Shown: in pieces, positions 3 to 42,529 of the stretch
How positions within the stretch are numbered: the stretch's first letter is position 1
How the letters are laid out: every line of letters starts with the position of its first letter
Source of the DNA: Burkholderia seminalis DSM 23518
Lineage (GTDB): Bacteria; Pseudomonadota; Gammaproteobacteria; Burkholderiales; Burkholderiaceae
Assembly: GCF_902832885.1 (NCBI RefSeq)
Contig: NZ_CADFDK010000002.1
Coordinates: 806,001 to 870,000, forward strand
Length of the DNA: 64,000 nucleotides
Direction: 5' to 3'
Made by a program: the position numbers and the translations under genes
Notes under the pieces: model-generated
Told to the model about the DNA's origin: nothing
The model's input: only the letters and a program-made list of their open reading frames with translations
Database searches by the model: none

Positions 3-28
3 AAAAGACGGGCCGAAGCCCGTCTTTT
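3..28. terminator. Intrinsic terminator after the Rieske oxygenase gene
   Basis: An 11-base-pair stem (3-13 with 18-28) closes on a CGAA tetraloop and is flanked by A and T runs, so it can work in both directions. It lies just past the stop of the leftward Rieske gene and probably ends that transcript. Confidence 0.8.
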
Positions 29-71
29 CGTCTGCCGGATACCATGCGGCGTCAAGGCGCCGCACCGGCCG

Positions 72-2704: not shown

Positions 2705-4609
2705 ATGTACGACTTGCTGAAAACCATCGACGACCCGGCGGATTTGCGCCGCCTCGATCGTCGCCAACTGCAACCGCTCGCGGATGAACTGCGTGCGTTC
2801 GTGCTCGACAGCGTGTCGAAGACGGGCGGCCATTTGTCGTCCAACCTCGGGACGGTCGAGCTGACGATCGCGTTGCACTACGTGTTCAACACGCCGAACG
2901 ATCGCATCGTCTGGGACGTGGGCCACCAGACCTACCCGCACAAGATCCTGACGGGCCGCCGCGACCAGATGCATTCGCTGCGTCAGCAGGACGGCATCTC
3001 GGGCTTCCCGCGCCGCAGCGAATCCGAATACGACACGTTCGGCACCGCGCACTCGAGCACGTCGATCTCGGCCGCGCTGGGCATGGCGATCGGCAGCCAG
3101 CTGAACGGCGACGACCGCTTCTCGATCGCCGTGATCGGCGATGGCGCGATGACGGCCGGCATGGCGTTCGAGGCGATGAACAACGCGGGCGTGTCGGAAG
3201 ACGCGAAGGTGCTCGTGATCCTGAACGACAACGACATGTCGATCTCGCCGCCGGTCGGCGCGCTGAATCGTCATCTCGCCCGCCTGATGTCGGGCCGCTT
3301 CTATGCGGCCGCGCGTGCCGGTGTCGAGCGCGTGCTGAGCGTGGCGCCGCCGGTGCTCGAACTCGCGCGCAAGCTCGAGGAGCACGCGAAGGGCATGGTC
3401 GTGCCGGCCACGCTGTTCGAGGAGTTCGGCTTCAACTACATCGGCCCGATCGACGGTCACGATCTCGATTCGCTGATCCCGACGCTGCAGAACATCCGCG
3501 AACTGCGCGGCCCGCAGTTCCTGCACGTGGTGACGAAGAAAGGCCAGGGCTACAAGCTCGCCGAAGCCGATCCCGTGCTCTATCACGGTCCCGGCAAGTT
3601 CAACCCGGCCGAAGGCATCAAGCCGTCGACCACGCCCGCGAAGAAGACCTACACGCAGGTGTTCGGCGAATGGCTGTGCGATGAAGCCGAGCGCGATACG
3701 CGCGTCGTCGGCATCACGCCCGCGATGCGCGAAGGCTCGGGCATGGTCGAGTTCGAGAAGCGTTTCAAGGATCGCTACTACGACGTCGGCATCGCCGAGC
3801 AGCACGCGGTGACGTTCGCGGGCGGCCTCGCAACCGAAGGGCTGAAGCCGGTCGTCGCGATCTATTCGACGTTCCTGCAACGGGCATACGACCAGCTGAT
3901 TCACGACGTCGCGCTGCAGAACCTGCCGGTCGTGTTCGCGATCGACCGCGCGGGCCTCGTCGGCGCGGACGGCGCGACGCACGCGGGTGCGTACGATCTC
4001 GCGTTCATGCGCTGCATCCCGAACATGACGATCATGGCGGCATCCGACGAGAACGAATGCCGCCAGATGCTGCACACGGCGCTGCAGCAGCCGAACCCGA
4101 CCGCGGTGCGTTATCCGCGCGGCGCGGGCACCGGGGTGGCGACGGTGAAGGAATTCACCGAGATCCCGGTCGGCAAGGGCGAAGTGCGTCGCCGCACGTC
4201 GCAGCCGGAAGGCAAGCGCGTCGCGATCCTCGCATTCGGCACGATGGTCGCACCGTCGCTGGCGGCGGGCGAGGAGCTCGACGCAACGGTCGCGAACATG
4301 CGCTTCGTGAAGCCGGTCGACGCGGCGCTCGTGCGCGAGCTCGCCGAAACGCACGACTACCTCGTCACGGTCGAGGAAGGTTGCGTGATGGGGGGCGCGG
4401 GCTCGGCCTGCGTGGAAGCCCTGATGGAGAGTGGGGTTATCCGACCCGTACTACAATTGGGCCTCCCTGACCTGTTCATCGATCACGGCGATCCCGCGAA
4501 GCTGCTGTCGCAATGCGGCCTCGACGGCGCGGGCATCGCGAAATCGATTCGCGAACGCTTTCTGAGCCCGGCGGCCGATGTCGCCGGTCAGGCGAAGCGC
4601 GTCGCATAA
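2705..4609 (+). CDS. dxs: 1-deoxy-D-xylulose-5-phosphate synthase
   Basis: 634 residues, full length. It is a thiamine-diphosphate enzyme that joins pyruvate and glyceraldehyde 3-phosphate in the first step of the MEP isoprenoid pathway and also feeds thiamine and pyridoxal synthesis. Landmarks are H43 and H74 (DVGHQ), the GDGAMTAG cofactor motif from 145, and D360-V-G-I-A-E365-Q-H, which holds the glutamate that activates the thiamine ring. The C-terminal transketolase domain is intact to SIRERF. The ATG at 2705 begins the conserved MYDLL sequence; an upstream in-frame start at 2669 adds unconserved residues. It follows ispA in the same direction and ends before a strong terminator. Confidence 0.97.
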
Positions 4610-4763: not shown

Positions 4764-5573
4764 ATGAACCAGATGAATCCCGCCTTCGTGATGCCCGACG
4801 TGCAGAGCACGGTGGATACCCGTCAGATCCCGATTCAGCGCGTGGGCGTGAAGGCGGTCCGGCATCCGTTGACGGTGTGCACCGAAAGCGGCGACGTGCA
4901 GCCGACCGTCGGTGTCTGGAACCTCGACGTCCGCCTGCCTGCCGACCAGAAAGGCACGCACATGTCGCGCTTCGTCGCGCTGCTCGAAGAGAACCGCGCG
5001 CCGCTGACGGTCGAGCGTTTCCGCGCGATGCTCGCGTCGATGCTCGAGAAGCTCGAAGCCGAAGCCGGCCGCATCGAGGTCACGTTCCCGTACTTCGTGA
5101 ACAAGACGGCGCCGGTGTCGGGCGTGCAGAGCCTGCTCGACTACGAAGTGACGCTCGCGGGCGAAAGCCGCAACGGCGACACGCGCCTGTTCCTGAAGGT
5201 GCTCGTGCCAGTGACGAGCCTGTGCCCGTGCTCGAAGAAGATCTCGCAGTACGGCGCGCACAACCAGCGCTCGCACGTGACGATCGATGCGGAGCTTGCA
5301 GCCGACCTGCCGGTCGAGGCGCTGATCCGTATCGCGGAAGAAGAGGCGTCGTGCGAACTGTGGGGCCTGTTGAAGCGTCCGGACGAGAAGTTCGTTACCG
5401 AGCGCGCCTACGAGAATCCGAAGTTCGTCGAGGATCTCGTGCGCGACGTCGCGCAGCGTCTCGATGCGGACGAGCGCGTGGCCGCCTACGTGCTCGAGGC
5501 CGAGAACTTCGAGTCGATCCACAATCACAGCGCGTACGCGCTGATCGAGCGCGACAAACGTCAGGCTGCATGA
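4764..5573 (+). CDS. folE2: GTP cyclohydrolase FolE2 (type IB)
   Basis: 269 residues, the size of GCYH-IB enzymes. It converts GTP to 7,8-dihydroneopterin triphosphate for tetrahydrofolate synthesis. The metal-site segment is clear: [10 protein letters not shown] with Cys154 and Cys156, followed by [10 protein letters not shown]. This enzyme type is not strictly zinc-dependent and often replaces FolE when zinc is scarce. I see no Zur box and cannot say whether it is zinc-regulated here. I start at the ATG at 4764 because AAGGA lies 9 bases before it; the frame also opens at 4713. It stands alone between two terminators. Confidence 0.95.
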
Positions 5574-29117: not shown

Positions 29118-30950
29118 TCAGCGTGCGAAGTCCGACGTGCTCTGGATGAATGTATTCAGCTTCGAGATGTTCACGCTGCCGAAGCCCGTCGTCGCGTCCC
29201 AGCCGGCCTTCGCCTTGTAGCCGTACGTGCCGCTGCCGTTGTTGCCGGACGTGACGTCGTGCAGCAACGCCGCGTTGGACGGGAAGTACTTGTAGATGCT
29301 CGACGCGGGGAAGCCGAGCGCATTGTTGTTGGCCGACTGCAGCCGCGCCCAGATGCCCGTGAAGATCGGCGCGGCGAGGCTCGTGCCGCCTTCGTTGTTC
29401 AGGTAGCCCGAGCCCCACAGCGTGTCGGAGGTCTGGCCGTTCACGACGAGAATCGCGCCGGTGCGCAGGTCGGCGTCGAAGCCGACGTCGGGCAGCGCGC
29501 GCTTGGTCGAGCCGGTCAGGGTCGACGACTGCCACGTCGGCGCGGCCTCGTACTTGCTGTACCCGCCGCCCGTCGACCACACCGTGCCCGGCTGCCAGCT
29601 CGGATCGTTCCAGACGATCTCGCTGTTGTACGCGTTGGTCGACGTATTCGTGAACAGCGTCGTGCCGCCTACCGCGATCACGTACGGCGACGTGGCCGGT
29701 TCGCTCACCGTGTAGGTCGAGCGCGACGGCGTGCCGCTCGCGCATTCGTACGCGCCGTGGTCGCCGGCCGACACGGAGAAGGTCTGCCCCTGCGCGACCG
29801 CCTGTTTGAAGATGGTGTCGTCGGTGGCCTGCGAGCCCGTGCTGTTGGCGGACGATTCGCACACGCCGAGCGACACGTTGATCACCTTCGCGACGTTGTC
29901 GGTCACGGCCTTGTTGTAGGCGGCGGTGATCGCGGTGAGCGTCATCGACGGCGCCACGTAGAACACGACCTGCTTCACGGCACCGCCTGCCGAGCCGACG
30001 ATCGACTGGCTGTCGAGGTTCCATTCGACGGTGCCGTCGGTGTCGGTGTACGAACTGCCGGACGGGCCGGTCTTCACGATGGCGCTTGCGATCGTGCCGA
30101 GGCCGTTGTTCGCCGCGAACGTATTGAGGTCGCTCACCGTCTGCGACAGGTCGCCTTCGGAGATGACGCCGACGGTGGTTTGCGACGCGTTCGGCACGCC
30201 GTCGCCGCCGTAGATCGACGAGAACTCGGTCGGGTTGTGCGGCACCGCCGACGCGCCGGCCGGAATCGTCAGGTTGCTGGTGTTGCCTTGCGGCTTGCTG
30301 CCCGCACCGGTATGCATCAGCTCGACGTTCTGCAGCCCGAGCACCGCACCCACGATGTTGCCGATCGCGTTCGGCACTTGCGCGGCATCGGTATTCGCAT
30401 AGACGCTGCGGCCGTTGCGCGTGAAGCGCTTGAGCGTCGTGCGGAATGCGGACTTGACGGTCGCCGCGGTGCCGGACGCGGATACCAGCAGGCGGTTCGG
30501 CGCGACCACGATGTTCACGAAACCTTCCTTGCGCAGGTGCGCGACGACGGACGCGACCTGCTGGTCGGTCGGCGCATATTGCGCGGCGAACTGCGCCGGC
30601 GTGAGGAACTGCCTGTAGTGCGGCGAGCCGGGCGTATGCAGATCGCGCAGGTACTGGTCGAGTTGCGCCTCGTTGCGCAGGTTCAAGCCGAGCACGATGT
30701 CGACCGATTCGCCGGGCGCCATCTCGATGGCCGAGGCGGCAGCGGCGGCCGTGCTCGCGGCGGGCGCGCCGGCGGTACCGGCTTCGCTCTGCTGCACGAG
30801 CGGCAGGAATCCCTTGGTGCGGGTTTCCGTCCAGCCTGCCGCCGGTGCGGCATGGGCGGTCGCCATGCCGAACGAAGCAAATGCCGCGGCGGCGAGTGCG
30901 AGCTTGACGATGCGAATGTGCTTGTGTTTCTTGTCTGCAACCTGATTCAT
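29118..30950 (-). CDS. Secreted serine-carboxyl peptidase, sedolisin family (S53)
   Basis: 610 residues. A signal peptide (AAAAFASFGMATAHA) is followed by a pro-kumamolisin activation domain (to about 210) and the S53 catalytic domain. The catalytic set is visible: E309 and D313 in VEWNLDS, the oxyanion D397 in SAGDHGAYE and S524 in GGTSLAAP. The calcium-site region near the end (LHDVTSGNNG and GWDATTGFGS) is present. Such enzymes are acid endopeptidases that mature by self-cleavage outside the cell. The ATG at 30950 follows a strong GGAGGGG; the frame runs about 300 bases further upstream but without a signal peptide at its start. It is monocistronic, with a long AT-rich leader. Confidence 0.94.
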   Translation of the reverse strand: MNQVADKKHKHIRIVKLALAAAAFASFGMATAHAAPAAGWTETRTKGFLPLVQQSEAGTAGAPAASTAAAAASAIEMAPGESVDIVLGLNLRNEAQLDQYLRDLHTPGSPHYRQFLTPAQFAAQYAPTDQQVASVVAHLRKEGFVNIVVAPNRLLVSASGTAATVKSAFRTTLKRFTRNGRSVYANTDAAQVPNAIGNIVGAVLGLQNVELMHTGAGSKPQGNTSNLTIPAGASAVPHNPTEFSSIYGGDGVPNASQTTVGVISEGDLSQTVSDLNTFAANNGLGTIASAIVKTGPSGSSYTDTDGTVEWNLDSQSIVGSAGGAVKQVVFYVAPSMTLTAITAAYNKAVTDNVAKVINVSLGVCESSANSTGSQATDDTIFKQAVAQGQTFSVSAGDHGAYECASGTPSRSTYTVSEPATSPYVIAVGGTTLFTNTSTNAYNSEIVWNDPSWQPGTVWSTGGGYSKYEAAPTWQSSTLTGSTKRALPDVGFDADLRTGAILVVNGQTSDTLWGSGYLNNEGGTSLAAPIFTGIWARLQSANNNALGFPASSIYKYFPSNAALLHDVTSGNNGSGTYGYKAKAGWDATTGFGSVNISKLNTFIQSTSDFAR

Positions 30951-31580
30951 TTGAATTACCCCTCCGGTTGAACATCGAACGGCACGAACAACAACGGTCG
31001 ACAGCGGTGCGGATCGTGCACCGCCGCTTGCTGCCGCATGCGTGCGGATGGCACGGACGCGACAGGGCCTTTCACCCGATCCGGAGAGATGGGTTTGCTC
31101 CGGGGGCGAAATACGGAAAACGCGATAACGGGAGGGCTGCGTCGCGCTGCGAGGCAGCCGCGCCGGACTGGATGCGGGCGGGATTGCTAGAGCAACAGTT
31201 TCGTTGTCCTGCTCATTTGATTCGATCCTTCGGCCCGCTGCCGGATGACAGCCGTCCAATGAGATGCATCGGGATATTGCATGCGCCGGTGTGCGAGAAA
31301 ATCAGCCGGCGGCGAGCACTGCGGTGCGGCGGAAGCGAAAAAACGTAGAGCGGAATCGATTGCGTGGTGAGCAATCCGTCAGATTGCTTGCATCGGAAGT
31401 TATCAAGAACGAAAGCGCAGTGTCAAACTTTTTTTGATTATATGAAACAAAATTAAACCGAATAAAGCGCAATGATTTTGAAAAGATCGACGGCATTTTG
31501 TAATGATCGAAGCCGGCAAGAAAGGTAATGCCGGAATCGATTCGTCGATCATTTCCGATTCGTTTCGTAATGGCCGGTTG
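30951..31580. other. Long upstream region of the sedolisin gene
   Basis: 630 bases between the peptidase start and the end of the regulatory operon. The outer part (about 31380-31560) is markedly AT-rich for this genome and carries a good sigma-70 promoter pointing to the peptidase. I see no gene in it. Confidence 0.5.
31398..31426 (-). promoter_or_regulatory. Candidate promoter of the sedolisin gene
   Basis: On the minus strand TTGACA (31426-31421) and ATAACT (31403-31398) are 17 bases apart. This would give a 5' leader of about 440 bases before the peptidase ATG. Confidence 0.45.
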
Positions 31581-32393
31581 CTATCGAGGAAATGCTCGAA
31601 TGGCCGGCGGGTGCCGCGGGAGGTCGAATTCGAGAACGGCATTGCCGCGGGGCGAGGCGAGATGGCGCAACTGCCCGCCGTGCGCCTGGACGATCGCGCG
31701 CGCGACGAACACGCCGAGCCCGGATTCGGCGAATCGTCGCGAACCTTCGTCTTCGATCCGGACGACGGCGCCCGCGGCGCGGTCTTCGACGAAGAGCTTC
31801 AGCGTGGCCGGCGCGGAATGGCACCGCATGTCGTCGAGCAGCGCGAGAACGGCCTGCCGGATGCGCGCGCCGTCGCAGGTCACGACGGTTGCGTCGGTCG
31901 TCAGGTCGATGACGAACCCCGCTTCTCGAAACGCTTTGCGGACCGAATCGATGGCACCGACGATTTCGCGGTCGAGCGCCGTCGAGCACAGGTCGAGTGT
32001 CAACCCCTCCGGTCGTTCGGCAACCTGAAGGTCGTCGACGAACCGGAACAGGTCGTCGACATGGTGAAGCAGCGTGTCGCTTGACGATGCGTCGGCTTCG
32101 TCGACGAGCCCCTTGATGGCTTCGAGCCGGGTTTCGAGTGCCCGGAGATGTTTCAGTTGATGGGTCATCGCATTGAAGTCCTCGATGAAGCGCGGCAGGC
32201 CGGACATGCAGCCGTCGCGGGAAATCGCACGCGCCGACCGGTCGCCGGCGGCGATGCGGGCGGTGTCGGCGGCCATCGCGTCGAGTGCCGCGAGCGTACG
32301 GCGCATCTGCCGGAACAGGTCGAACGCGGCGGCCAGCAGGCACACGAACAGCACCGTCGCGAGCATCAGGTAAGTGGACGCGCTGCCGATCAT
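31581..32393 (-). CDS. Degenerate sensor-kinase-like protein lacking the phospho-acceptor histidine
   Basis: 270 residues. One N-terminal membrane helix (ASTYLMLATVLFVCLLAAAF) is followed by a HAMP-like linker (LDAMAADTARIAAGDRSARA) and a region aligned with the dimerisation and ATPase domains of histidine kinases. The H-box is missing: where a kinase has a histidine followed by Glu-Leu-Arg, this protein reads LEAIKGLVDEADASSSDTLL. The N-box lacks its Asn (LALLDDMRCHS), the first glycine box reads DEGSRR and only GLGVFVARAIVQAHGG resembles a normal second box. It may be a non-enzymatic partner. Its ATG overlaps the 52-residue gene (ATGA), and it is the last gene of the operon started by the response regulator. 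Confidence 0.75.
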   Translation of the reverse strand: MIGSASTYLMLATVLFVCLLAAAFDLFRQMRRTLAALDAMAADTARIAAGDRSARAISRDGCMSGLPRFIEDFNAMTHQLKHLRALETRLEAIKGLVDEADASSSDTLLHHVDDLFRFVDDLQVAERPEGLTLDLCSTALDREIVGAIDSVRKAFREAGFVIDLTTDATVVTCDGARIRQAVLALLDDMRCHSAPATLKLFVEDRAAGAVVRIEDEGSRRFAESGLGVFVARAIVQAHGGQLRHLASPRGNAVLEFDLPRHPPAIRAFPR

Positions 32394-32548
32394 CGTGCCG
32401 CCCGCTGCATCGTGCGGAAATGCCGCCGGGTGACGCGACGCGACGCGTAAAGCAGGAAGGCAACGGTGCAGGCGGTCAGCACGGCGACGATTGCGCCCAG
32501 GCCGATCGCCTGTCCGATTTGCCGGCCGGGCTTCGCCGGCAACGTCAC
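32390..32548 (-). CDS. Small membrane protein (52 residues) between response regulator and kinase-like gene
   Basis: The gene starts with GTG at 32548, overlapping the regulator's stop (GTGA), and its stop overlaps the ATG of the kinase-like gene (ATGA). The product has a short basic start (TLPAKPGRQIGQ), one hydrophobic helix (AIGLGAIVAVLTACTVAFLL) and a very basic cytoplasmic tail (ASRRVTRRHFRTMQRAAR). The exact fit between two genes with overlaps at both ends argues that it is translated. I do not recognise a family. It may be a split-off first helix of the sensor or a small regulator of it. Confidence 0.65.
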   Translation of the reverse strand: MTLPAKPGRQIGQAIGLGAIVAVLTACTVAFLLYASRRVTRRHFRTMQRAAR

Positions 32549-33237
32549 TGCAGGCCCCGCAGCCGGTAGCCGACACCGCGCATCACTTCGGGCATGCCCG
32601 GTGCGCCGGCCTGTTCGAGCTTCTTGCGCAGCCGGCAGATGTGGCTGTCGACCGTGCGCTCCAGCGCGCTCACGTCGGCCATGCACGCATCGAGCAGTTC
32701 GCCGCGCGTGAACACGCGGCTCGGCGATCGCGCCATGTGAGCGAGCAGCCGGAATTCCGTCAGCGTCAGCGTGATCGGTATCTCGGCGGAATCCGTCCGC
32801 ACGCGGGCCAGATAGCTGTCGGTGTCGATCTCCAGGTTGCCGACGCGCAACATGAGCGCCGCCGGTGGCGCGGCCGACCGGCGCAGGATCGCGCGCAGCC
32901 GCGCGACGACTTCGGCCGGGTTGAACGGCTTGACGATGTAGTCGTCCGCGCCGGCGTGCAGCGCCTGCAGCCGGTCGAGGTCGCGGTCGAACGCGGTGAG
33001 GACGACGACGGGCGTGTTGCCGCGCCGCCGCAGCTCGGTGAGCACGTTCCAGCCGTTTTCCCGCGGCATCTTCACGTCGAGCAGGATCAGGTCGGGCTTC
33101 AGGTGCGGCTGTACGTCGAGCACCGCTTGCCCGTCGGCGACGCGGTAGGTGCGAAAGCCGTCGTGCGTCAGGTATGCATCGAGGATGTCGGAGATATCGG
33201 GTTCGTCTTCTGCAATCAGTATCAGGGAATTCGTCAT
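32545..33237 (-). CDS. OmpR/PhoB-family response regulator
   Basis: 230 residues. The receiver domain has the acidic pocket E10-D11-E12, the phospho-acceptor D54 (LILLDVKMP) and the conserved lysine in DDYIVKPFN. A winged-helix DNA-binding domain follows (LTEFRLLAHMARSPSRVFTRGELL, SHICRLRKKLEQ, VMRGVGYRL). It resembles BaeR and AdeR, which control RND pumps. The RND operon lies directly upstream in the same direction, about 100 bases away, so it may regulate that pump. I start at the ATG at 33237, the normal receiver start. It is followed without gap by the 52-residue and the kinase-like genes. Confidence 0.93.
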   Translation of the reverse strand: MTNSLILIAEDEPDISDILDAYLTHDGFRTYRVADGQAVLDVQPHLKPDLILLDVKMPRENGWNVLTELRRRGNTPVVVLTAFDRDLDRLQALHAGADDYIVKPFNPAEVVARLRAILRRSAAPPAALMLRVGNLEIDTDSYLARVRTDSAEIPITLTLTEFRLLAHMARSPSRVFTRGELLDACMADVSALERTVDSHICRLRKKLEQAGAPGMPEVMRGVGYRLRGLQ

Positions 33238-33338
33238 GGGGTTCGCCGTGCGATGTCGAACAATCGGGGCAGCCCGTTGCCGGGCCGGATCGCGCCGTTC
33301 CGTCCCGCTGCCGCGCGGGGTGGGGCGGCGCCGTTCGT

Positions 33339-34769
33339 TCAGTTCTGCACCACGCTCGGCGACGGTGCGACGTCCTTGTCCGTCAGGCCGCCGCCGAGCG
33401 CCTTGTACAGTGCAACGGCGTTGCCGAGCTCGCTGCGACGCAGGTCGAGCAGCGCCTGCCGTGCCGAGTAGAGCTGCCGCTGCGAATCGAGCAGTTCCAG
33501 CCGCCCCTCGACACCCGCGCGATAGCGCAGGTTCGACAGGTCGGTGCGGCGCTCGGCCGAGCCGACCACGCGCGTCTGCGCGTCGATCTGCCGTCCGAAG
33601 GTCTCGCGCCCGGCGATACCGTCGGCTACTTCGCGGAACGCGGTCTGGATCGAGCGTTCGTACTCGGCGACGGCACTCGACTTGCGCACTTCCGCGAGAC
33701 GCAGCTCGGCGCGCAGGCGCCCGCCCTGGAAGATCGGCACCGTGACCTGCGGCGCGAAGCTCCACGTGCGTTGTCCGCCGTCGAACAGGCTGCCCATCGC
33801 CGGGCTGAGGAAGCCGATCGACGACGTCAGCGACAGGCGCGGGAAGAACGCTGCGCGTGCGGCGCCGATATCGGCATTGGCGGCGACGAGATTCTGTTCG
33901 GCTTGCTGGATATCAGGACGACGGAACAGCAGTTCGGACGGCAGACCGGCCGGCAGTTGCGTCATCACCGGTTGCTGCTGAAGCGGCACCGGCTCCGGCA
34001 GATCCTTCGGCAGATCGGTGCCGACCAGCAGGCGCAATGCGTTGCGTGCCTGCTCGACGGCGCGCGTGCGCGCTTCGAGATCGGCCGTGGCGCTCGCGAC
34101 CTGGCCTTCGGCCTGTGCGATGTCGACGCCGCTCGCCTGATGCGCATCCTTCAGGCGGCGCGCGAGGTCGAGCGACTGTCGCCAGTCGGCGAGGGTGCGC
34201 TCGGACAACTGGCGTTGCTCCTGCGCGAGGCGTTCCGCGAAGTACGCGTCCGCGACGCCGCCGACCAGCGAGATCTGCACCGCGCGGCGGCCATGATCGG
34301 TTGCGAGGTAGCGCGCAAACGCCGCATCCGACTGCGACTTCACGCGACCGAACAGGTCGATCTCGAACGCGCTGATGCCGACGTTCACGCCGTACTGGTT
34401 CTGCGTCGTGCCGAACAGCGGCGGACTCGACTGCGTGTCGTCCGACGTACGCTGGCGCGTGAAGCTCGCGCCGGCGCCGATCGACGGCAGGCGCGCGGAG
34501 CGCTGGATGCCGTACTGCGCTTCGGCGGCCTCGACGTTCAGCGCCGCGACGCGCAGGTCGCGGTTGTTCTCGAGCGCGAGCTCGATCAGCCGCTGCAGGC
34601 GGCGATCGCCGAACATCGTGCGCCAGCCGAGATCGGCGGCGTTGGCCTGGAGGTCGGCGGCCGCGGCGGCCGTGTAGGCCGTCGGCACCGGCATCGAGGG
34701 CTTGACCAGCGTCGGCGCGAGCGAGCAGGCCGACAGGGCGAGGACGAGGGGGAGAATGAGCAATCGCAT
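33339..34769 (-). CDS. Outer-membrane efflux channel lipoprotein (OprM/NodT type) of the RND pump
   Basis: 476 residues. The lipobox LSAC marks an outer-membrane lipoprotein, and two OEP repeats follow, with the typical GWRTMFGDRRLQRLIELALENNRDLR and, in the second half, LRYRAGVEGRLELLDSQRQLYSARQAL. It forms the trimeric exit duct for the RND pump encoded 4 bases upstream. The whole set (adaptor, pump, channel) resembles the OqxAB/MexEF group in gene order. From memory it probably corresponds to the system named RND-8 in B. cenocepacia. Confidence 0.94.
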   Translation of the reverse strand: MRLLILPLVLALSACSLAPTLVKPSMPVPTAYTAAAAADLQANAADLGWRTMFGDRRLQRLIELALENNRDLRVAALNVEAAEAQYGIQRSARLPSIGAGASFTRQRTSDDTQSSPPLFGTTQNQYGVNVGISAFEIDLFGRVKSQSDAAFARYLATDHGRRAVQISLVGGVADAYFAERLAQEQRQLSERTLADWRQSLDLARRLKDAHQASGVDIAQAEGQVASATADLEARTRAVEQARNALRLLVGTDLPKDLPEPVPLQQQPVMTQLPAGLPSELLFRRPDIQQAEQNLVAANADIGAARAAFFPRLSLTSSIGFLSPAMGSLFDGGQRTWSFAPQVTVPIFQGGRLRAELRLAEVRKSSAVAEYERSIQTAFREVADGIAGRETFGRQIDAQTRVVGSAERRTDLSNLRYRAGVEGRLELLDSQRQLYSARQALLDLRRSELGNAVALYKALGGGLTDKDVAPSPSVVQN

Positions 34770-34773
34770 GGCA

Positions 34774-37700
34774 TCAACCTTCCTGTCCGTGAGTCGGGGC
34801 GGCCGGCTGCTTGCGGGAAGCCCGCCATGCGCCGATGCGCTCCTGGATGCTCGTCACGAACACAAAGAAAACAGGGACGAAGAAAATGGCCAGCACCGTG
34901 GCGGTCACCATGCCGCCGAACACACCGGTACCGATCGCGTGCTGCGTTTCGGCGCTGGCACCGGTCGCGATCGTCAGCGGCACGACACCGAGGCCGAACG
35001 CGAGCGAGGTCATCAGGATCGGGCGCAGGCGCAGCTTCGACGCCTGCACGGCCGCTTCGACGAGCCCCTTGCCTTCCTCGCGCAGCTGCTTCGCGAATTC
35101 GACGATCAGGATGGCGTTCTTCGCGGACAAGCCGATCACGGTGATCATCCCGACCTTGAAGAACACGTCGTTCGGCAGGCCGCGCAGCAGCACCGCCCCG
35201 ATCGCGCCGATCAGGCCGAGCGGCACCACCAGCATCACCGACAGCGGGATCGACCAGCTTTCGTACAGCGCGGCGAGCACGAGGAACACGACGATCATCG
35301 ACAGCACCATCAGCATCGGCGCCTGCGACGCCGACTGGCGTTCCTGCAGCGACTGGCCGGTCCACTCGACCGCGAAGCCCGGCGGCAGTTGCGCGGCGAG
35401 ACGCTCCATCTCGGCCATGGCCGCGCCGCTCGACTGGCCCGGTGCGGCGTTGCCCGAGATCCGCGCGGACGGGTAGCCCTTGAAGCGCACCATCTGCAGC
35501 GGCGTCTCGGCCCATACCGGGCGAACCACTTCGGACAGCGGCACCATGCCGCCGGCCGCGTTGCGCACGTACAGCTTCATCACGTTGTCGATCTGCATGC
35601 GCGCCGGCGCGTCGGCCTGGATGATCACCTGCTGCATGCGGCCCGCGTTCGGGAAGTCGTTCACGTAGGTCGAACCCATCGCGGTCGACAGCGTGTCGCT
35701 GAGCGTCGTGAACGACACGCCGAGCGCTTGCGCCTTCGCACGGTCGATTTCGAGGCGGATGCTCGTGCCGGCAGGAAGGCTGTCCGGGTACACGCCCGCC
35801 ACGACCTTGCTTTGCGCGGCGAGTTCGAGCAGCTTGACTTCCGCCGCCTTGAGCGCCGCCGCGCCCTGGTTGGCACGGTCTTCCAGACGCATCGAGAAGC
35901 CGGAGCTGTTGCCGAGTTCGTCGATCGCCGGCGGCAGCAGGCTCATCACCGTGCCTTCGGTCACGCCGGCCATCGCTTGCTGCGCGAGCATGCCTTCCTC
36001 GAGGGTCGACGCGCCGCCCCGGTTCTTCCAGTCCTTCATCACGGACCAGTTGATCGCCGCGTTCGGACCTTGCCCCGAGAAGCCGTAGCCGATCACGGAA
36101 ATGCTCGACTGGATTGCCGGACGCGAGGCAAGATGCTTCTCCAGCGTCTCGACCACGTCGTGCGTACGTTCGGCGGTAGCGTCCGCGGGCAGCAGAAAGC
36201 TGGTGATGAAGTAACCCTGGTCCTCGTCCGGCAGGAACGACGACGGCAGGCTGCGGAAGCCGAACACCAGGGCGCCGGAGATCGCGACGAACACCAGCAT
36301 CACCCGGCCCGTGCGGCCGACCAGGCGGCCGACGCGCGTCTCGTACCATTTCGTCAGGCGATCGAAGCGGCGGTTGAACCAGCCGAAGAAGCCGCGTTTC
36401 TCGTGATGGCCCGGTTCGAGCGGCTTGAGCATCGTCGCGCACAGGGCCGGCGTGAGCGTCAGCGCCAGCAGTGCCGAGAACAGGATCGACACGGCCATCG
36501 ACATCGTGAACTGCTGGTAGATCACGCCGACCGAGCCGCTCGCCATCGCCATCGGCAGGAACACCGCGGTCAGCACCAGCGTGACGCCGATGATCGCGCC
36601 GGTGATTTCCTTCATCGCCTTCGAGGTCGCGTCCTTCGGCGACAGTCCTTCCTCGGCCATCAGGCGCTCGACGTTCTCGACGACGACGATCGCATCGTCG
36701 ACGATGATGCCGATCGCGAGCACCATGCCGAACATCGTCAGCACGTTGATCGAGAAGCCGGTCATCAGCATCACCGTGAACGTGCCGAGCATCGCGACCG
36801 GCGCGACGATGGCCGGAATCAGCGTATAGCGCACGTTCTGCAGGAACAGGTACATCACGAGGAACACGAGCACCATCGCTTCGAGCAGCGTGTGCAGCAC
36901 CTTCTCGATCGAGATCTTCACGAACGGCGACGTGTCGAGCGGAATCGAGTAGGTCATGCCGGACGGCATCGACTTGCTCAGTTCGGCCATGCGCGCGCGG
37001 ATCGCGTCCGCGGTCTTCACCGCGTTGGCGCCCGGTGCGAGCTGCACGCCGGCGAGGGTGGCCGGCTTGTTGTTCTCGCGGCTCACGAACGTGTAGTTCT
37101 GCGAGCCGAGTTCGATGCGTGCGACGTCGCCGAGCACGACTTTCGAGCCGTCCGCGTTCGCGCGCAGCACGACCTTCGCGAACTCCTCCGGCGTCGTGAG
37201 CTGGCCCTGCGCGGTGAGCGGCACGGTCACGCGCTGGCCCGGCAGCGCGGGCAGCGCACCGAGGCTGCCCGGCGCGATCTGCACGTTCTGCTGGCCGATC
37301 GCGGTCGTCAGGTCGCTCATCGACAGGCCGAAATTGATCAGCTTCTGCGGATCGACCCAGATGCGCATCGCGCGTTCGGAGCCGAACTGCAGCACCCGCC
37401 CGACGCCGTCGATTCGCCGCAGTTCCTCGGACACGCTGCGCGCCATGTAGTCGGCGAGCGCTCCTTCGTCGAAGCGGCCGTTGTCGGAGCGCAGGCCGAT
37501 CAGCATCAGGAAGCCGGACGACGCCGATTCGACGATCAGCCCGTTCTGGCGCACGGCCGCCGGCAGGCGCGGCTCGACCGACTTGATCTTGTTCTGCACG
37601 TCGACCTGCGCCATCTCCGGGTTGGTACCGGGCTTGAACGTCACGGTGATCTGCGCGGAGCCGGACGTATCGGCCGACGATTCGAAGTAGAGCAGGTTCC

Positions 37701-37917
37701 TGACGCCGGACAGTTCGCGTTCGATGAGGCTCAGCACGCCGTCGTTCATCGTCTGCGGCGTGGCGCCCGGGTAGTTCGCGGTGATCGTGACGGACGGCGG
37801 CGCGACCGACGGGTAGCGCGCGACCGGCAGTTGCGGGATCGCGATCAGCCCCGTCAGGATGATGAAGAGCGCGATCACCCACGCGAACACCGGGCGTCGG
37901 ATAAAGAATTCAGCCAT
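34774..37917 (-). CDS. RND multidrug efflux pump, HAE1 family
   Basis: 1047 residues with twelve membrane helices and two large periplasmic loops. The start AEFFIRRPVFAWVIALFI is the HAE1 signature. The proton-relay aspartates D407 and D408 lie in LAIGIIVDDAIVVVEN. The trimeric inner-membrane pump takes hydrophobic and amphiphilic drugs from the periplasm and membrane and passes them to the outer-membrane channel. It lies 20 bases after the adaptor gene and 4 bases before the channel gene, one operon. I start at the ATG at 37917. Substrates cannot be told from sequence. Confidence 0.96.
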   Translation of the reverse strand: MAEFFIRRPVFAWVIALFIILTGLIAIPQLPVARYPSVAPPSVTITANYPGATPQTMNDGVLSLIERELSGVRNLLYFESSADTSGSAQITVTFKPGTNPEMAQVDVQNKIKSVEPRLPAAVRQNGLIVESASSGFLMLIGLRSDNGRFDEGALADYMARSVSEELRRIDGVGRVLQFGSERAMRIWVDPQKLINFGLSMSDLTTAIGQQNVQIAPGSLGALPALPGQRVTVPLTAQGQLTTPEEFAKVVLRANADGSKVVLGDVARIELGSQNYTFVSRENNKPATLAGVQLAPGANAVKTADAIRARMAELSKSMPSGMTYSIPLDTSPFVKISIEKVLHTLLEAMVLVFLVMYLFLQNVRYTLIPAIVAPVAMLGTFTVMLMTGFSINVLTMFGMVLAIGIIVDDAIVVVENVERLMAEEGLSPKDATSKAMKEITGAIIGVTLVLTAVFLPMAMASGSVGVIYQQFTMSMAVSILFSALLALTLTPALCATMLKPLEPGHHEKRGFFGWFNRRFDRLTKWYETRVGRLVGRTGRVMLVFVAISGALVFGFRSLPSSFLPDEDQGYFITSFLLPADATAERTHDVVETLEKHLASRPAIQSSISVIGYGFSGQGPNAAINWSVMKDWKNRGGASTLEEGMLAQQAMAGVTEGTVMSLLPPAIDELGNSSGFSMRLEDRANQGAAALKAAEVKLLELAAQSKVVAGVYPDSLPAGTSIRLEIDRAKAQALGVSFTTLSDTLSTAMGSTYVNDFPNAGRMQQVIIQADAPARMQIDNVMKLYVRNAAGGMVPLSEVVRPVWAETPLQMVRFKGYPSARISGNAAPGQSSGAAMAEMERLAAQLPPGFAVEWTGQSLQERQSASQAPMLMVLSMIVVFLVLAALYESWSIPLSVMLVVPLGLIGAIGAVLLRGLPNDVFFKVGMITVIGLSAKNAILIVEFAKQLREEGKGLVEAAVQASKLRLRPILMTSLAFGLGVVPLTIATGASAETQHAIGTGVFGGMVTATVLAIFFVPVFFVFVTSIQERIGAWRASRKQPAAPTHGQEG

Positions 37918-37937
37918 GACTGGTGGCTCCTCGTGAC

Positions 37938-39095
37938 TCAGTGCGCGGACGCGGTGGTGGCCGCGTCGGGCGACTTCCAGTCGATCGCGGCGGCCGGCGC
38001 GCCGTCGATCAGGCGTTCCATGCCTTCGACGACGATCTTCTGGCCGGCCTGCAGGCCCGACTTGATGCGGTAGCTGCGGTTCGTCAGCTCGCCGACCTCG
38101 ACGGCCTGCAGATGCGCGGTGCCCTTCGCGTCGAGCACCCACACCTGCGGCTTGCCGCCCGCGCGCACGACCGCCTGTTGCGGCACCATCACCGCGCTGG
38201 CGTAGTGCGCGCGCGGAATGCGGGCACGCACGTACATGCCCGGCAGCAGCTGGCGTTTCGGGTTGTCGACCAGCACGCGCAGCAGCACGTCGCCGGTGCC
38301 CGGATCGACGTTGACGCCCGAGAACAGCATGCGTCCCTTCACGTCGAAGCGCGTGTCGTCGTCGCGCAGCACGTCGACCGGCAGGCCGTTGCCGGTCGCG
38401 CCCGGCTGCGCGGCAAGCGCGCCGCGCAGCGATTCGAGCGACGCGGCCGGCTGGCGCACGTCGACGTAGACCTGGTCGATCTGCTGGATGCGCGCCATCG
38501 GCTGGCTGTCGGTGCTCGACACCAGCGCGCCTTCGGTCACGAGCGCCTGGTCGATGCGGCCGGCGATCGGCGCCTCCACGGTGGCGAATTTCAGGTCGAG
38601 CTGGCGGCGCGCGAGCGTCGCGCGGGCCTGCGCGACGTCGGCGGCGGCCTGGTCGCGTTGCGACACGGCGTCGTCGTACACCTGGCGGCTGATCGCATCG
38701 GCCTCGACGAGCGGCTTGAAGCGCGCGGTCTGCACCTTCGCGCGTTCGAGCGCGGCCTGCGCGCGCTGCAGCGACGCGGCGGCCGTGTCCATGTCGGCCT
38801 TGAACGGCGCCGGATTGATCTGGAACAGCGGCTGGCCCGCGCGCACCTCGGTGCCTTGTTCGAACAGCCGGCGCTGGACGATGCCGCTGACCTGCGGGCG
38901 GATCTCGGCGATCCGCACGGCCGCGACGCGGCCCGGCAGGTCTTCGCTCACGTCGAGGGGCGCGGCCGCGAGTGTCATCGCCGCAACCGGGATGGCCGGT
39001 GCGGCGGCCTGCTGTTCGGCGGGTCCGCACCCCGCCAGTACTGCCGCCGCCAGCGCGCATACCGCGCTGTAGCAGCATCGTTTCTGATTCTTCAT
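37938..39095 (-). CDS. RND efflux periplasmic adaptor (membrane-fusion protein)
   Basis: 385 residues. The lipobox LAGC anchors it to the inner membrane. The lipoyl halves flank a coiled-coil hairpin (about 90-165, AALERAKVQTARFKPLVEADAISRQVYDD... region), followed by beta-barrel and membrane-proximal domains. It bridges pump and channel. It is the first gene of the adaptor-pump-channel operon. The promoter should lie between 39096 and about 39300; no obvious boxes are seen, and no divergent regulator gene is present, unlike many RND loci. The nearest regulator is the OmpR-type gene downstream. Confidence 0.94.
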   Translation of the reverse strand: MKNQKRCCYSAVCALAAAVLAGCGPAEQQAAAPAIPVAAMTLAAAPLDVSEDLPGRVAAVRIAEIRPQVSGIVQRRLFEQGTEVRAGQPLFQINPAPFKADMDTAAASLQRAQAALERAKVQTARFKPLVEADAISRQVYDDAVSQRDQAAADVAQARATLARRQLDLKFATVEAPIAGRIDQALVTEGALVSSTDSQPMARIQQIDQVYVDVRQPAASLESLRGALAAQPGATGNGLPVDVLRDDDTRFDVKGRMLFSGVNVDPGTGDVLLRVLVDNPKRQLLPGMYVRARIPRAHYASAVMVPQQAVVRAGGKPQVWVLDAKGTAHLQAVEVGELTNRSYRIKSGLQAGQKIVVEGMERLIDGAPAAAIDWKSPDAATTASAH

Positions 39096-39302: not shown

Positions 39303-39662
39303 CGCAGTCAACGAGGAGCGATCGCGGCCTGGCGAGCTACGCTGGCCGTCAGCCGAAAGACACGGCAGTCTGACGGCCAGTCGGACGCCGCGGTGTTCGG
39401 GCTCGATGCGCGCGATGGCTTGCGCCGGTTCGTGAAGAACGAACCGGCGGGGGCGCTGGGCGAATGGAGTGGCGAGGAGGCGCGGCTGCACCGGCTCGCG
39501 ACGACAAGGCTGCCGGGCCCGCGGCGGCTGGATGTCGTGCAGGCGGCGGGGCGCGAGCGGATGCTGCTGAATGCGGTGCCCGGCGACAACCTCGAACTGG
39601 CGCAACTCGCGCCGGCCGCGAAGATGACGATCGTTATCGACGTGTTGAAAGGCCGCGCACGA
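39303..39662 (+). pseudogene. Truncated relic of an aminoglycoside 3'-phosphotransferase gene, APH(3')
   Basis: In the frame of 39303 the translation resembles the N-terminal third of NptII/APH(3') kinases. AAW, QSDAAVF, FVK, GAL, EEARLHRLATT, LDVV, AAGRERMLL, VPG and LAPAAKMTI fall in the same order and spacing as AAW, CSDAAVF, FVK, GAL, DEAARLSWLATT, LDVV, EAGRDWLLL, VPG and LAPAEKVSI. Similarity stops near 39662, where the sequence turns AT-richer. About 170 residues, including the catalytic HGD loop, are absent. An in-frame stop at 39300 and no good start codon leave it non-functional. The comparison is from memory of the NptII sequence. Confidence 0.75.
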
Positions 39663-39751
39663 ATCGCTCCTCCTATCCGTGCGCTATCCAAATTTCGTAG
39701 TACTCCTGCTGTTTTTAAACGAATTCTCGCATTTGCTACGCATTCCCCGCG

Positions 39752-40222
39752 TCAGTCGCGATCCCGCCAGGCATTGGCGAAACGAAGGCCGTCGCCGAGC
39801 GTGCACTGGAACACCTGGGCCGGCGCGACGGGCTGGTACGTCGTGGGCGAAAGCGAGCGCACCGTTACCGTCGCGCTTTCGTCCTGCATCACGCGATACT
39901 GGATCAGCTCGAGCACCGTCGCGCCGCTCGGCTGGACGGTCAGGTGCTGGTTGGCGAACGCGAGCGTATTGCCGCCGATTTCCATGAAATCGCGTATCGC
40001 GAAACCGCCTGATACGGTGGGTACGGGTGCCCGGGTTGCGGCTTGCTGCGCGTTCTGGCACTGGTTCGGCGAGAAGATCGCGGTGACCGTCACGCCCGCG
40101 AAGAGCCGCGTGCGCAGCTGGCGATACGCATTGGCGCTGTCCGGTTGGATGCCCGCGGCCGTTGCCGCGAGGCTGGTTGCCGCGCCGGCGGCAACCAGAA
40201 CAATGGCGAAGCGATTCAGCAT
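39752..40222 (-). CDS. Hypothetical secreted protein
   Basis: 156 residues with a clear signal peptide (MLNRFAIVLVAAGAATSLAA). The mature part has two cysteines (SPNQCQNAQ and VFQCTLGDG) that could form a disulphide, and a beta-rich look (GGNTLAFANQHLTVQPSGATVLELIQYRV). I recognise no family. The ATG at 40222 starts the signal peptide; an earlier in-frame start is not needed. It lies downstream of the ankyrin and catalase genes on the same strand, 80 bases after the ankyrin gene, and may be co-transcribed. The plus-strand frame across it is an extension of the APH relic and not a gene. Confidence 0.65.
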   Translation of the reverse strand: MLNRFAIVLVAAGAATSLAATAAGIQPDSANAYRQLRTRLFAGVTVTAIFSPNQCQNAQQAATRAPVPTVSGGFAIRDFMEIGGNTLAFANQHLTVQPSGATVLELIQYRVMQDESATVTVRSLSPTTYQPVAPAQVFQCTLGDGLRFANAWRDRD

Positions 40223-40303
40223 TTTCCTGTCTCCGTGCGATGAAACCAACGGCACCATAGCACGGTGCGCTCGCATGGTTCAGACGGTTGACGCGTAGTC
40301 GCG

Positions 40304-40915
40304 CTACGGTCTGGCACCGGCTTGCCGCAGCGCATCCGCGGCATCGGTGTTGTCGTGCGTCAGCGCGAGCTGCAGCAGCGACTGGCCGCGCCGGTCGACA
40401 TGGTTCGGATTCGCGCCGTGCGCGACGAGCAGCGGAATCAGTTCGAAGCGATTGAACAGCGTCGCGAATCCCAGTGCGGTTTCGCCGGCGCCGTTCGTCT
40501 GGTCGATCGGGCAGCGCGTGTCGATCAGGCGGCGGGCGATGTCGGGTTCGTTCTTGAAGAGCGCACCCATCAGCGCCGTATTGCCGTGTCGATCGCCGAT
40601 GCACGCGTTGGCGCCGGCCGACAACAGGTAGTCGAGTGCGGCGGGCTGGCCGTCGTACGACGCGAGTATCACGGCCGTAAAGCCGCGGCTGTCGGTGGTG
40701 TCGACGGGATACCCGGCGTCGTGCAACGCGCGCAGGATGTCGACGCGGCCGACGCGGGCGGCGTCGAACCAGTCGCCGTCATAGCGGCGCAGTGCGGCGG
40801 GATCGGCCTTGCCGTACGCCGGCTGGTCGGGCAGATGCGCGCAGCCGGCGATCGCGGCCAGCGCCAGCGCCGTCGTCGCCACGCGAACCGCATGGGTGAA
40901 ACGTTCTGATCGCAT
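40304..40915 (-). CDS. Ankyrin-repeat lipoprotein (AnkB-like)
   Basis: 203 residues. Lipobox IAGC, then about four ankyrin repeats with the usual phrases (DTTDSRGFTAVILASYDGQ, IGDRHGNTALMGALFKNE, QTNGAGETALGFATLFNR, HVDRRGQSLLQLALTHDN). In Pseudomonas aeruginosa a similar protein, AnkB, is encoded with katB and is needed for full catalase activity in the periplasm. Here it follows the katB-like catalase by 78 bases on the same strand, which supports the same role. Confidence 0.88.
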   Translation of the reverse strand: MRSERFTHAVRVATTALALAAIAGCAHLPDQPAYGKADPAALRRYDGDWFDAARVGRVDILRALHDAGYPVDTTDSRGFTAVILASYDGQPAALDYLLSAGANACIGDRHGNTALMGALFKNEPDIARRLIDTRCPIDQTNGAGETALGFATLFNRFELIPLLVAHGANPNHVDRRGQSLLQLALTHDNTDAADALRQAGARP

Positions 40916-40993: not shown

Positions 40994-42529
40994 TCAGTTG
41001 TCGCTCAGTTTCGCCGCAAGCGACTGCACCTGCTGAACGTTCGCGTGAACGGCCTGCGCGAGCCGCGTGCCGTAGTCGGCATCGGCCTTGTAGAAGTACG
41101 ACAGCATCGCGTACTGGTTATGCGCGTTCTTCGCCTGGCCGAGATCGCCGGACAGCGCGGTGACGAGGTCGTCCTTGTCCTGCTGCGACAGGCTGCGGTA
41201 GTACTCGCCGGCTTGACGGAACAACAGCTTCTTGTGGATCGCTTCCTGTTGCGTCGTGCCGCTGAGCGGCGTGCGGACCGACTTGTACTGCGGATCCTGC
41301 GCAAGCTCGTTCAGCGTCGACGGCTCGTAGTTCACCTCGCCCTTGCGATCGCCGAAGTTCATCTTGCCGTCCTGGTTGTTGTTGACCACCGGCACGACGG
41401 GGCGGTTGATCGGCAGGTCCATGTAGTTCGCGCCGAGGCGGTACATCTGCGTGTCGGCATACGCGAACAGGCGATCCTGCAGCATCCGGTCTTCGGACGG
41501 CTCGATGCCCGGCACGAGCCGCGACGGCGCGAACGCCGATTCCTCGGTTGACTGGAAGTAGTTGTCGGGCACGCGATTGAGCGTCATCGTGCCGATCTTG
41601 CGTTCAGGTACGCCGGTCCACACCTTCGTATCGTCCAGCGCGTCGAAGTCGAAGCGGTTCAGGTCCTTCGGCGTGAGCACCTGCACGTACAGATCCCACT
41701 TCGGGAAATCGCCTTGCTTCAGCGCGCCGTACAGGTCGTTCGTCATCATGTTCCAGTCGTGCCCGATCGACGCGGCGATCTCTTGCGGACGTAGGCCGTG
41801 CACGCCTTGCTGGCTCTTCCAGTGGAACTTCACGTAGTGCACGTCGCCCTGCGCATTGACGAACTTGAACGCATGCACCGCGAAGCCGTCCATGCGGCGG
41901 TACGAGTCGGGCATCCCGGCATCCGAGTACAGCATCGTCAGCATGTGGGTCGCTTCGGGCGTATGGGCGAAGAAGTCGAACGCGAGGTTCGGGTCCTGCA
42001 CGCCGGTCACGGCGCTCGGCTTGTTCGCGTGAACGAAGTCGGGGAACTTGATGCCGTCGCGAATGAAGAACACGGGCCAGTTGATGCCGACCATGTCCCA
42101 GTTGCCCTGCTGCGTATAGAACTTCACCGCGAAGCCGCGCGGATCGCGTGCCTGTTCGGGCGAGCCGCGATAACCCATCACGGTCGAGAAGCGCACGAAC
42201 ACCGGCGTGCGGGTGCCGGGCGTGAAGACTTTCGCTTTCGTCAGGTCGGAGATGTCGGCGCTCGGCACGAACTCGCCGAATGCCCCGGTGCCGCGCGCAT
42301 GCACGACGCGTTCCGGAATGCGCTCGCGATCGAAGCGCTGCAGTTTCTCGATGAGCGCGGAGTCCTGCAGCAGCACGGGGCCGGCGGGGCCGGCCGTCTG
42401 CGAATTCTGGTTGTCGCCGACGGGCGCGCCCGTGTCGCGCGTGAGTTCGGCGGCATACGGGGAAGCGGAGAGGGCAACGCAGATCGCGGCGACTGCGTGC
42501 CGCAGCGCACGATGAGAGGATGAGGACAT
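40994..42529 (-). CDS. katB: Periplasmic catalase
   Basis: 511 residues, clade-type small-subunit haem catalase with a signal peptide (ALRHAVAAICVALSASPYAA). Catalytic H77 lies in ERVVHARGTGAFGEF and N150 in DMVGINWPVFF; the haem-ligand tyrosine is in RLFAYADTQMYRLG. It breaks hydrogen peroxide down to water and oxygen, here most likely in the periplasm. AAGGAG precedes the ATG at 42529. The ankyrin gene follows, as in the katB-ankB operon of P. aeruginosa, which is induced by peroxide through OxyR. A possible OxyR site lies about 80 bases upstream. Confidence 0.94.
   Translation of the reverse strand: MSSSSHRALRHAVAAICVALSASPYAAELTRDTGAPVGDNQNSQTAGPAGPVLLQDSALIEKLQRFDRERIPERVVHARGTGAFGEFVPSADISDLTKAKVFTPGTRTPVFVRFSTVMGYRGSPEQARDPRGFAVKFYTQQGNWDMVGINWPVFFIRDGIKFPDFVHANKPSAVTGVQDPNLAFDFFAHTPEATHMLTMLYSDAGMPDSYRRMDGFAVHAFKFVNAQGDVHYVKFHWKSQQGVHGLRPQEIAASIGHDWNMMTNDLYGALKQGDFPKWDLYVQVLTPKDLNRFDFDALDDTKVWTGVPERKIGTMTLNRVPDNYFQSTEESAFAPSRLVPGIEPSEDRMLQDRLFAYADTQMYRLGANYMDLPINRPVVPVVNNNQDGKMNFGDRKGEVNYEPSTLNELAQDPQYKSVRTPLSGTTQQEAIHKKLLFRQAGEYYRSLSQQDKDDLVTALSGDLGQAKNAHNQYAMLSYFYKADADYGTRLAQAVHANVQQVQSLAAKLSDN

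What the first reader, a model, noticed from the sequence alone, without database searches (positions are those of the whole stretch)
39303..39662. Truncated relic of an APH(3') aminoglycoside kinase gene beside the RND pump
The plus-strand frame reproduces about a dozen short motifs of NptII-type kinases in the right order and spacing over the first 90 or so residues, then ends abruptly in AT-richer sequence. The catalytic domain is gone and an in-frame stop precedes it. It suggests that an ancestor carried a chromosomal aph(3') gene, of which this lineage kept only the start. It lies directly upstream of an efflux operon, in the space where a divergent regulator gene often sits.
Basis: partly seen in the sequence, partly recalled or inferred. 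Interest (0 to 1): 0.72.

Follow-up and report, generated by a model that had tools for sequence, protein, structure and literature searches.

The report
Dead remnant of a kanamycin-kinase gene
This stretch is the leftover front part of a chromosomal gene for an enzyme of the kind that inactivates kanamycin; some related Burkholderia still carry the whole gene at this spot while others keep different broken pieces, so it is a fossil of a resistance gene lost more than once within the group.

Summary
The finding is real. Frame +, about 39323-39643, is the 5' part of an APH(3')-II-type aminoglycoside kinase gene (NF032898, E 2.7e-19; PDB 1nd4, E 2.1e-16). It is dead: about 41 nt with both candidate start codons and about 450 nt with the catalytic motifs are missing compared with an intact copy, and 18 of 20 private changes alter the protein. 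Of 65 Burkholderia genomes, 26 share this neighbourhood: 11 carry a full 254-codon gene there, 12 (window included) carry relics, 3 show no trace. Relics keep different pieces, so at least 4 deletion histories are independent without a tree; parsimony gives 9 losses on a gyrB+rpoB tree and 14 on a flank tree. The kinase tree conflicts with the gyrB+rpoB tree, so exchange between species contributed. An ordinary pseudogene with an unusually clear record of repeated decay of an intrinsic resistance gene. Eight open-access searches showed no description of it.

The parts
39323..39643 (+). Remnant of the 5' part of an APH(3')-II-type kinase gene, about gene nt 6-326 of 765; permissive alignment extends it to 39670 (gene nt 353)
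39321..39322 (+). Point at which about 41 nt present in the intact G007 copy are missing, including both candidate start codons (254- and 264-aa starts)
   Evidence: alignment with the intact G007 copy and the G053 relic
39643..39660 (+). 3' truncation: about 450 nt of the gene (all of the catalytic part) and a few bases past its stop are missing
   Evidence: interval from adapter gene to virK-like gene is 660 nt here against 1153 in G007
39655..39751 (.). AT-richer intergenic flank that follows the gene in relatives
39752..40276 (-). VirK-domain gene (PF06903), convergent with the relic
40304..40915 (-). Ankyrin-repeat gene used as right-hand anchor of the locus
40994..42529 (-). Catalase gene, right-hand anchor
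37938..39095 (-). Periplasmic adapter gene of the RND pump, divergent from the relic, left-hand anchor
34774..37917 (-). RND permease gene (NF000282, above cut-off)
33339..34769 (-). Outer-membrane efflux protein gene (PF02321)

Best explanation
The fragment is a pseudogene: what is left of a chromosomal APH(3')-II-type kinase gene that stood between an RND pump operon and a virK-like/ankyrin/catalase block in ancestors of this Burkholderia lineage. Shown: homology, position shared with intact orthologs, loss of the start region and of the whole catalytic part, and an excess of protein-altering changes. Inferred: the fragment does nothing now. Without the old start codon and catalytic residues it cannot give a working kinase, and the sequence that follows was brought next to it by deletion. 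The intact orthologs most likely phosphorylate the 3' hydroxyl of kanamycin- and neomycin-type drugs using ATP (from the family, not tested). The locus decayed by deletion several times in the group, probably because the gene is dispensable in cells already protected by efflux and their outer membrane (reason inferred). Alleles of the locus were also exchanged between species.
For: APH(3')-II model and PDB matches; 142 bits against 11.2 for the best of 2000 shuffles. Same-site intact copies in 11 genomes, each with HGDACLPN and IDCGR; 4 of 4 scanned score 365-382 bits, above the family's cut-off of 360. Two missing segments in the window. dN/dS of relic against intact copies 0.36-0.69; intact pairs over the full gene have median 0.216, range 0.095-0.316. 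18 of 20 private changes alter the protein, against 28 of 54 pooled over the 11 intact copies (Fisher p 0.0028). Relics at the same place and orientation in 11 further genomes. Losses: 9 on the gyrB+rpoB tree (8-12 over 1000 bootstrap trees), 14 on the flank tree (9-15), at least 4 distinct deletion histories from mutually exclusive retained pieces.
Against: No expression or function data. Over codons 2-106 the intact pairs reach dN/dS 0.627 (median 0.306), so dN/dS on this short piece alone does not separate the relic cleanly, and single intact copies also show mostly protein-altering private changes (3 of 3 in G019, 3 of 4 in G001). The general Pfam APH model misses the fragment. The frame is still open by chance for 331 codons. 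The kinase tree rejects the gyrB+rpoB topology (AU p 4.8e-5), so counts of loss that assume vertical descent are uncertain, and a relic allele could have arrived by recombination.
Confidence: 0.95

Rival explanations
1. The open frame (GTG at 39393, 301 codons) is a new protein-coding gene made of the kinase fragment fused to sequence antisense to the virK-like gene.
For: The frame is open to 40298.
Against: Long chance frames are common in this GC-rich window (one search lists many); the part after about 39655 is conserved intergenic flank and then the opposite strand of a conserved gene; the kinase part carries 18 of 20 protein-altering private changes.
Confidence: 0.03
2. The fragment is kept as part of the control region of the divergent RND pump operon, with the old kinase DNA serving as promoter or operator.
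For: It lies directly upstream of the divergent pump operon; the first about 120 nt upstream of the adapter gene are well conserved in the four sequences aligned.
Against: The conserved part is outside the kinase fragment; relatives that have the pump here keep different pieces of the kinase, down to 68 nt in G054.
Confidence: 0.07
3. The fragment came from a recently acquired aph(3')-IIa (neo/nptII) cassette or a cloning vector.
For: Best family match is APH(3')-II.
Against: 48.9% amino-acid identity to the plasmid aph(3')-IIa copies listed, against 67.0% to a 3.5-Mb Burkholderia arboris record (labelled plasmid); intact orthologs sit at the same place in 11 genomes.
Confidence: 0.01
4. One ancestral inactivation, followed by different later deletions and by re-entry of intact copies into some lineages by recombination, rather than many separate losses.
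For: The kinase tree conflicts with the gyrB+rpoB tree (AU p 4.8e-5), so exchange happens.
Against: Intact and broken copies interleave in two different trees; intact copies show constraint (full-gene dN/dS median 0.216). The mutually exclusive pieces show separate deletions but would not by themselves exclude one earlier inactivating change.
Confidence: 0.15

Closest known systems
APH(3')-II family (NCBIfam NF032898; solved structure 1nd4)
   Same: The relic aligns to profile positions 3-118; intact same-locus orthologs cover 1-256 of 256 and pass the curated cut-off in 4 of 4 scanned; one was matched to 1nd4 over its length.
   Different: The window copy has lost its start and everything after about codon 110; the intact orthologs have conserved chromosomal-type neighbours, while 19 of the 20 records listed from the plasmid collection (257 matching records in all) are annotated aph(3')-IIa copies at 48.9% identity.
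APH(3')-IIc, the intrinsic kinase of Stenotrophomonas maltophilia (passages of review PMC8347278 read)
   Same: A kinase of the same named class in an environmental opportunist; the review lists it as intrinsic resistance to kanamycin, neomycin, 'paromycin' (as printed) and butirosin.
   Different: Different genus; that one is described as working, the window copy is dead. I did not align the two.
Resistance-gene pseudogenes in bacteria generally (recalled)
   Same: Loss of start and catalytic part by deletion, relaxed constraint.
   Different: Here 12 genomes keep about 9 different piece patterns at one site, beside 11 intact copies.

Membership tests
APH(3')-II (NF032898), window fragment | Score above the curated cut-off of 360 bits | tested here: not met
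   69.5 bits, profile 3-118 of 256: a relic of the family, not a member as a working gene
APH(3')-II (NF032898), window fragment | Catalytic loop HxDxxxxN and IDxGR motif (patterns recalled) | tested here: not met
   Absent from the frame; segment missing in alignment
APH(3')-II (NF032898), window fragment | Start codon at the conserved place | tested here: not met
   About 41 nt missing there; the first start codon in the frame is GTG at 39393, inside the fragment
APH(3')-II (NF032898), intact same-locus orthologs | Score above the curated cut-off | tested here: met
   372.2, 382.4, 365.2 and 375.1 bits for the 4 of 11 scanned
APH(3')-II (NF032898), intact same-locus orthologs | Catalytic motifs present | tested here: met
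   HGDACLPN and IDCGR in 11 of 11
APH(3')-II (NF032898), intact same-locus orthologs | 3'-phosphorylation of kanamycin/neomycin | not testable with these tools
   Needs an enzyme assay
APH superfamily PF01636 | Score above the gathering cut-off | tested here: not met
   No hit for the window fragment; 137.5 bits for the one intact ortholog scanned, G056
Pseudogene | Intact ortholog at the same locus in relatives, disabling lesions, relaxed constraint | tested here: met

The most novel reading that the evidence does not exclude
The Burkholderia cepacia group inherited an intrinsic APH(3')-II kinase next to an RND pump with an AdeR-like regulator, and loses it over and over because losing it is favoured (or its job is done by the pump), while recombination between species keeps intact and broken versions of the locus side by side. 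In this reading the site is a natural experiment on the cost of an intrinsic resistance gene.
Probability: 0.25. Interest if true: 0.55.

Novelty: new member of a known kind. Interest (0 to 1): 0.4.

Why it matters
Whether intrinsic resistance genes are kept by selection or persist as baggage is hard to see, because lost genes usually leave no trace. Here one site shows a whole series, from intact copies to a 68-nt crumb, in closely related species with known neighbours. It makes two questions testable: what the working gene contributes to aminoglycoside tolerance in these bacteria, and whether its loss follows lifestyle or the neighbouring efflux pump. It also warns that a search by gene name may report an APH(3')-II fragment that confers nothing.

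Tried and rejected
Recent acquisition from a plasmid or vector: rejected, 48.9% identity. A second copy or the missing half elsewhere in the genome: the 10 PF01636 matches in this genome do not include the site; P0002 matches only the site; the intact-protein profile matches only the site at E 1e-40 or better, a threshold that would miss a short piece elsewhere. First gyrB+rpoB tree: discarded, because some sequences were taken on the wrong strand (alignment 2720 columns instead of 2433, one branch of length 10); redone. G053 has no rpoB in that tree (none found). Vertical inheritance of the kinase: tested and not supported (AU p 4.8e-5; Spearman 0.17, p 0.22), so loss counts are given as ranges. 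Pump and decay: a pump adapter gene adjoins the site in 10 of 12 relic and 4 of 11 intact genomes, Fisher p 0.036, not corrected for relatedness; of the 12 of 26 genomes without a full adapter at the site, 11 have an adapter elsewhere and G035 has none at E 1e-100; not used as evidence. In one search permissive scoring gave matches at E 1.5e-7 to 5.6e-5 inside pump genes (mostly minus strand) and in G008; these are treated as noise. One search's range for G039 ran into the ankyrin gene, so the ranges reported here are those of default scoring. There the pieces counted have E 7.9e-23 or better, except the short 3' pieces of G055 (1.6e-12), G026 (5.7e-12) and G039 (3.6e-8); the 5' piece of G053 rests on tblastn (1.5e-11) and the alignment. 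Weak hits in G041 (L024) and G032 (L025) lie on other contigs than the site and were not counted. Homologs outside the genus, G273 and G288, and a distant one in G048, show no DNA similarity to the window's neighbourhood (about 1.5 kb either side). Literature: eight answered searches (listings only) and passages of three papers (PMC8347278, PMC10880607, PMC4143217) showed no description of a chromosomal aph(3') in Burkholderia; parentheses cannot be searched, so a paper using only the form aph(3') could be missed.

Full report
What is at 39303-39662. The plus-strand frame starting at 39303 is open, without a stop, to 40298 (331 codons). Its first about 115 codons match APH(3')-II aminoglycoside kinases: NCBIfam NF032898 E 2.7e-19 over profile positions 3-118 of 256, and PDB 1nd4 E 2.1e-16 for the 94-residue core. 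As a control, 2000 shuffles of the 106-codon piece were scored against a model built from the intact Burkholderia copies: 142.0 bits for the piece, 11.2 for the best shuffle; in the six-frame window (stop-to-stop stretches of 20 or more codons) the next best frame reached 5.2 bits. Pfam's general APH model does not detect the piece. The frame runs on by chance through the 3' flank and then antisense to a VirK-domain gene.

The same site in relatives. A search of 65 Burkholderia genomes with the 94-residue piece matched 17, the window's own included. The right-hand neighbours (ankyrin-repeat and catalase genes) matched as long DNA at E 2.4e-291 or better in 25 of 65 genomes. One more, G057, has the kinase and a partial ankyrin gene on a short contig. 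I fetched 30 regions besides the window: the 25 others of these 26, plus five with only a distant flank (G008, G010, G062, G045, G059). In those five only weak matches or none appeared. Of the 26, 11 have a full 254-codon frame ending in the same residues, with HGDACLPN and IDCGR. Four of those were scanned and all pass the APH(3')-II cut-off (365-382 bits against 360); one was matched to 1nd4 over its length at E 1.1e-101. At the conserved 254-codon start, 10 of 11 have ATG or GTG and G018 has neither. Twelve, the window included, have partial copies in the same place and orientation. Three (G006, G035, G043) show no trace by blastn at E 1e-2. Among 15 named records, whole copies are in 9: B. 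cepacia LK29, B. arboris (two records), B. puraquae, B. cenocepacia NCTC13227, B. aenigmatica, B. lata, and Burkholderia sp. BCC1644 and D-99 (frame of the second B. arboris record checked). Partial copies are in 5: B. anthina, B. metallica, sp. MS389, sp. BCC0506 and a MAG. None was found in 1, B. catarinensis. Fourteen of these 15 are the same kinds of genome as the unnamed ones, not extra evidence: the whole copies in 8 of them are identical to copies in the unnamed set.

How it broke. Aligned with the intact G007 copy, the window lacks about 41 nt between 39321 and 39322. That stretch holds both plausible start codons. The window also lacks about 450 nt from about 39643 to just past the stop, after which the AT-richer flank resumes. 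The interval from the adapter gene to the virK-like gene is 660 nt here and 1153 nt in G007. The catalytic motifs are in the lost part.

Constraint. Over codons 2-106 the window differs from intact copies with dN 0.18-0.24 and dN/dS 0.36-0.69. Intact pairs have median dN 0.092 and dN/dS 0.306 in that region (maximum 0.627), and dN/dS 0.216 over the full gene, range 0.095-0.316. At positions fixed among the other copies the window has 20 private changes, 18 of them altering the protein, falling at codon positions 1, 2 and 3 as 10, 8 and 2 (available positions 75, 75 and 38). The 11 intact copies have 0 to 9 such changes each, 54 in all, 28 of them protein-altering (Fisher p 0.0028). The window was compared with 11 copies and each intact copy with 10, a small bias against finding private changes in the window. 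This is decay, although on so short a piece the dN/dS values alone overlap and two intact copies (G019 3 of 3, G001 3 of 4) also have mostly protein-altering changes.

How many losses. Retained pieces of the gene by default blastn (nt of 765, except where noted): window 6-317 (to 326 with another copy); G053 about 1-150 and 465-765; G055 222-539 and 717-765; G041 152-279 and 600-760; G026 63-227 and 632-689; G039 68-222 and 633-689; G037 73-193; G032 591-709; G034 591-704; G023 594-765; G011 676-765; G054 695-762. G026 and G039 evidently share one deletion, and G032 and G034 share a left edge. Window, G053, G055 and G041 each keep something that each other of the four lacks, so at least four deletion histories are independent without any tree; G026/G039 would be a fifth if their short 3' pieces are accepted. 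Parsimony with a single origin gives 9 losses on a gyrB+rpoB tree of the 26 genomes (8-12 over 1000 bootstrap trees) and 14 on a tree of the adjacent ankyrin/catalase DNA, 25 genomes (9-15). Against a simple reading, the kinase tree of the 11 intact copies rejects the gyrB+rpoB topology (AU p 4.8e-5), and its distances do not track those genes (Spearman 0.17, p 0.22). Exchange of the locus between species is therefore part of the story, and some losses or intact copies may have travelled. Several branches of the gyrB+rpoB tree are weakly supported.

Surroundings. The relic lies divergent from an RND operon: adapter 37938-39095, permease 34774-37917, outer-membrane protein 33339-34769. Next to it are a response regulator whose best model is AdeR (247 bits, cut-off 340) and a kinase whose best model is AdeS (71.5 bits, cut-off 500), both below cut-off. 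That AdeABC of Acinetobacter exports aminoglycosides is recalled, not from a call. It suggests, no more, that the pump and the kinase had overlapping jobs. In 10 of 12 relic genomes and 4 of 11 intact genomes the full adapter gene adjoins the site (Fisher p 0.036, uncorrected for relatedness).

Outside the genus. With the profile of the 11 intact proteins, 15 of 398 family genomes match at E 1e-40 or better: 13 in the genus and two of one other genus, G273 and G288. The 13 include the window and G055 relics and a distant full-length match in G048 (150 bits), which is not one of the 26; G057 is not among the matches listed. G273, G288 and G048 show no DNA similarity to the window's neighbourhood in the stretches fetched. 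So the gene at this site looks like an old resident of one part of Burkholderia; where it came from is open.

Verdict. The single fragment is ordinary. What lifts it is the series of intact, partial and vanished copies at one site. I rate interest 0.4: a specialist in resistance evolution would use it but not be astonished. Novelty: a new member of a known kind (pseudogene and orthologs of APH(3')-II). No paper describing it was seen in the listings of eight open-access searches, which do not cover most subscription journals.

Noticed in passing
window 29118-39095 and loci L010, L013, L014, L015, L019, L020: The locus comes in two layouts: in six of the 11 intact genomes the kinase gene lies directly beside the homolog of window 30303-31576 (serine-peptidase-like ORF 29118-31259; name recalled, no family search) with no pump between them; these six copies also group together in the kinase tree.
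   Followed up: partly
L030 about 3438-3845 (G058): The pump adapter gene itself is a broken remnant beside an intact kinase gene: pieces at 72% and 44% identity only.
   Followed up: no
window 31549-33237, minus strand: Response regulator and sensor kinase beside the pump match AdeR and AdeS models best, both under the curated cut-offs.
   Followed up: no
L034, L035 (G056, G055), oriented positions 4982-5086: The virK-like gene matches over only its first 35 residues there (77% identity), so the next gene along also seems to be eroding in some relatives; in several others no virK match was found beside the ankyrin gene.
   Followed up: no
G061, G030, G059: These three of the 44 genomes with a pump adapter at E 1e-100 have two copies; in G061 one (93% identical) is at the site and one (88%) elsewhere.
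   Followed up: no
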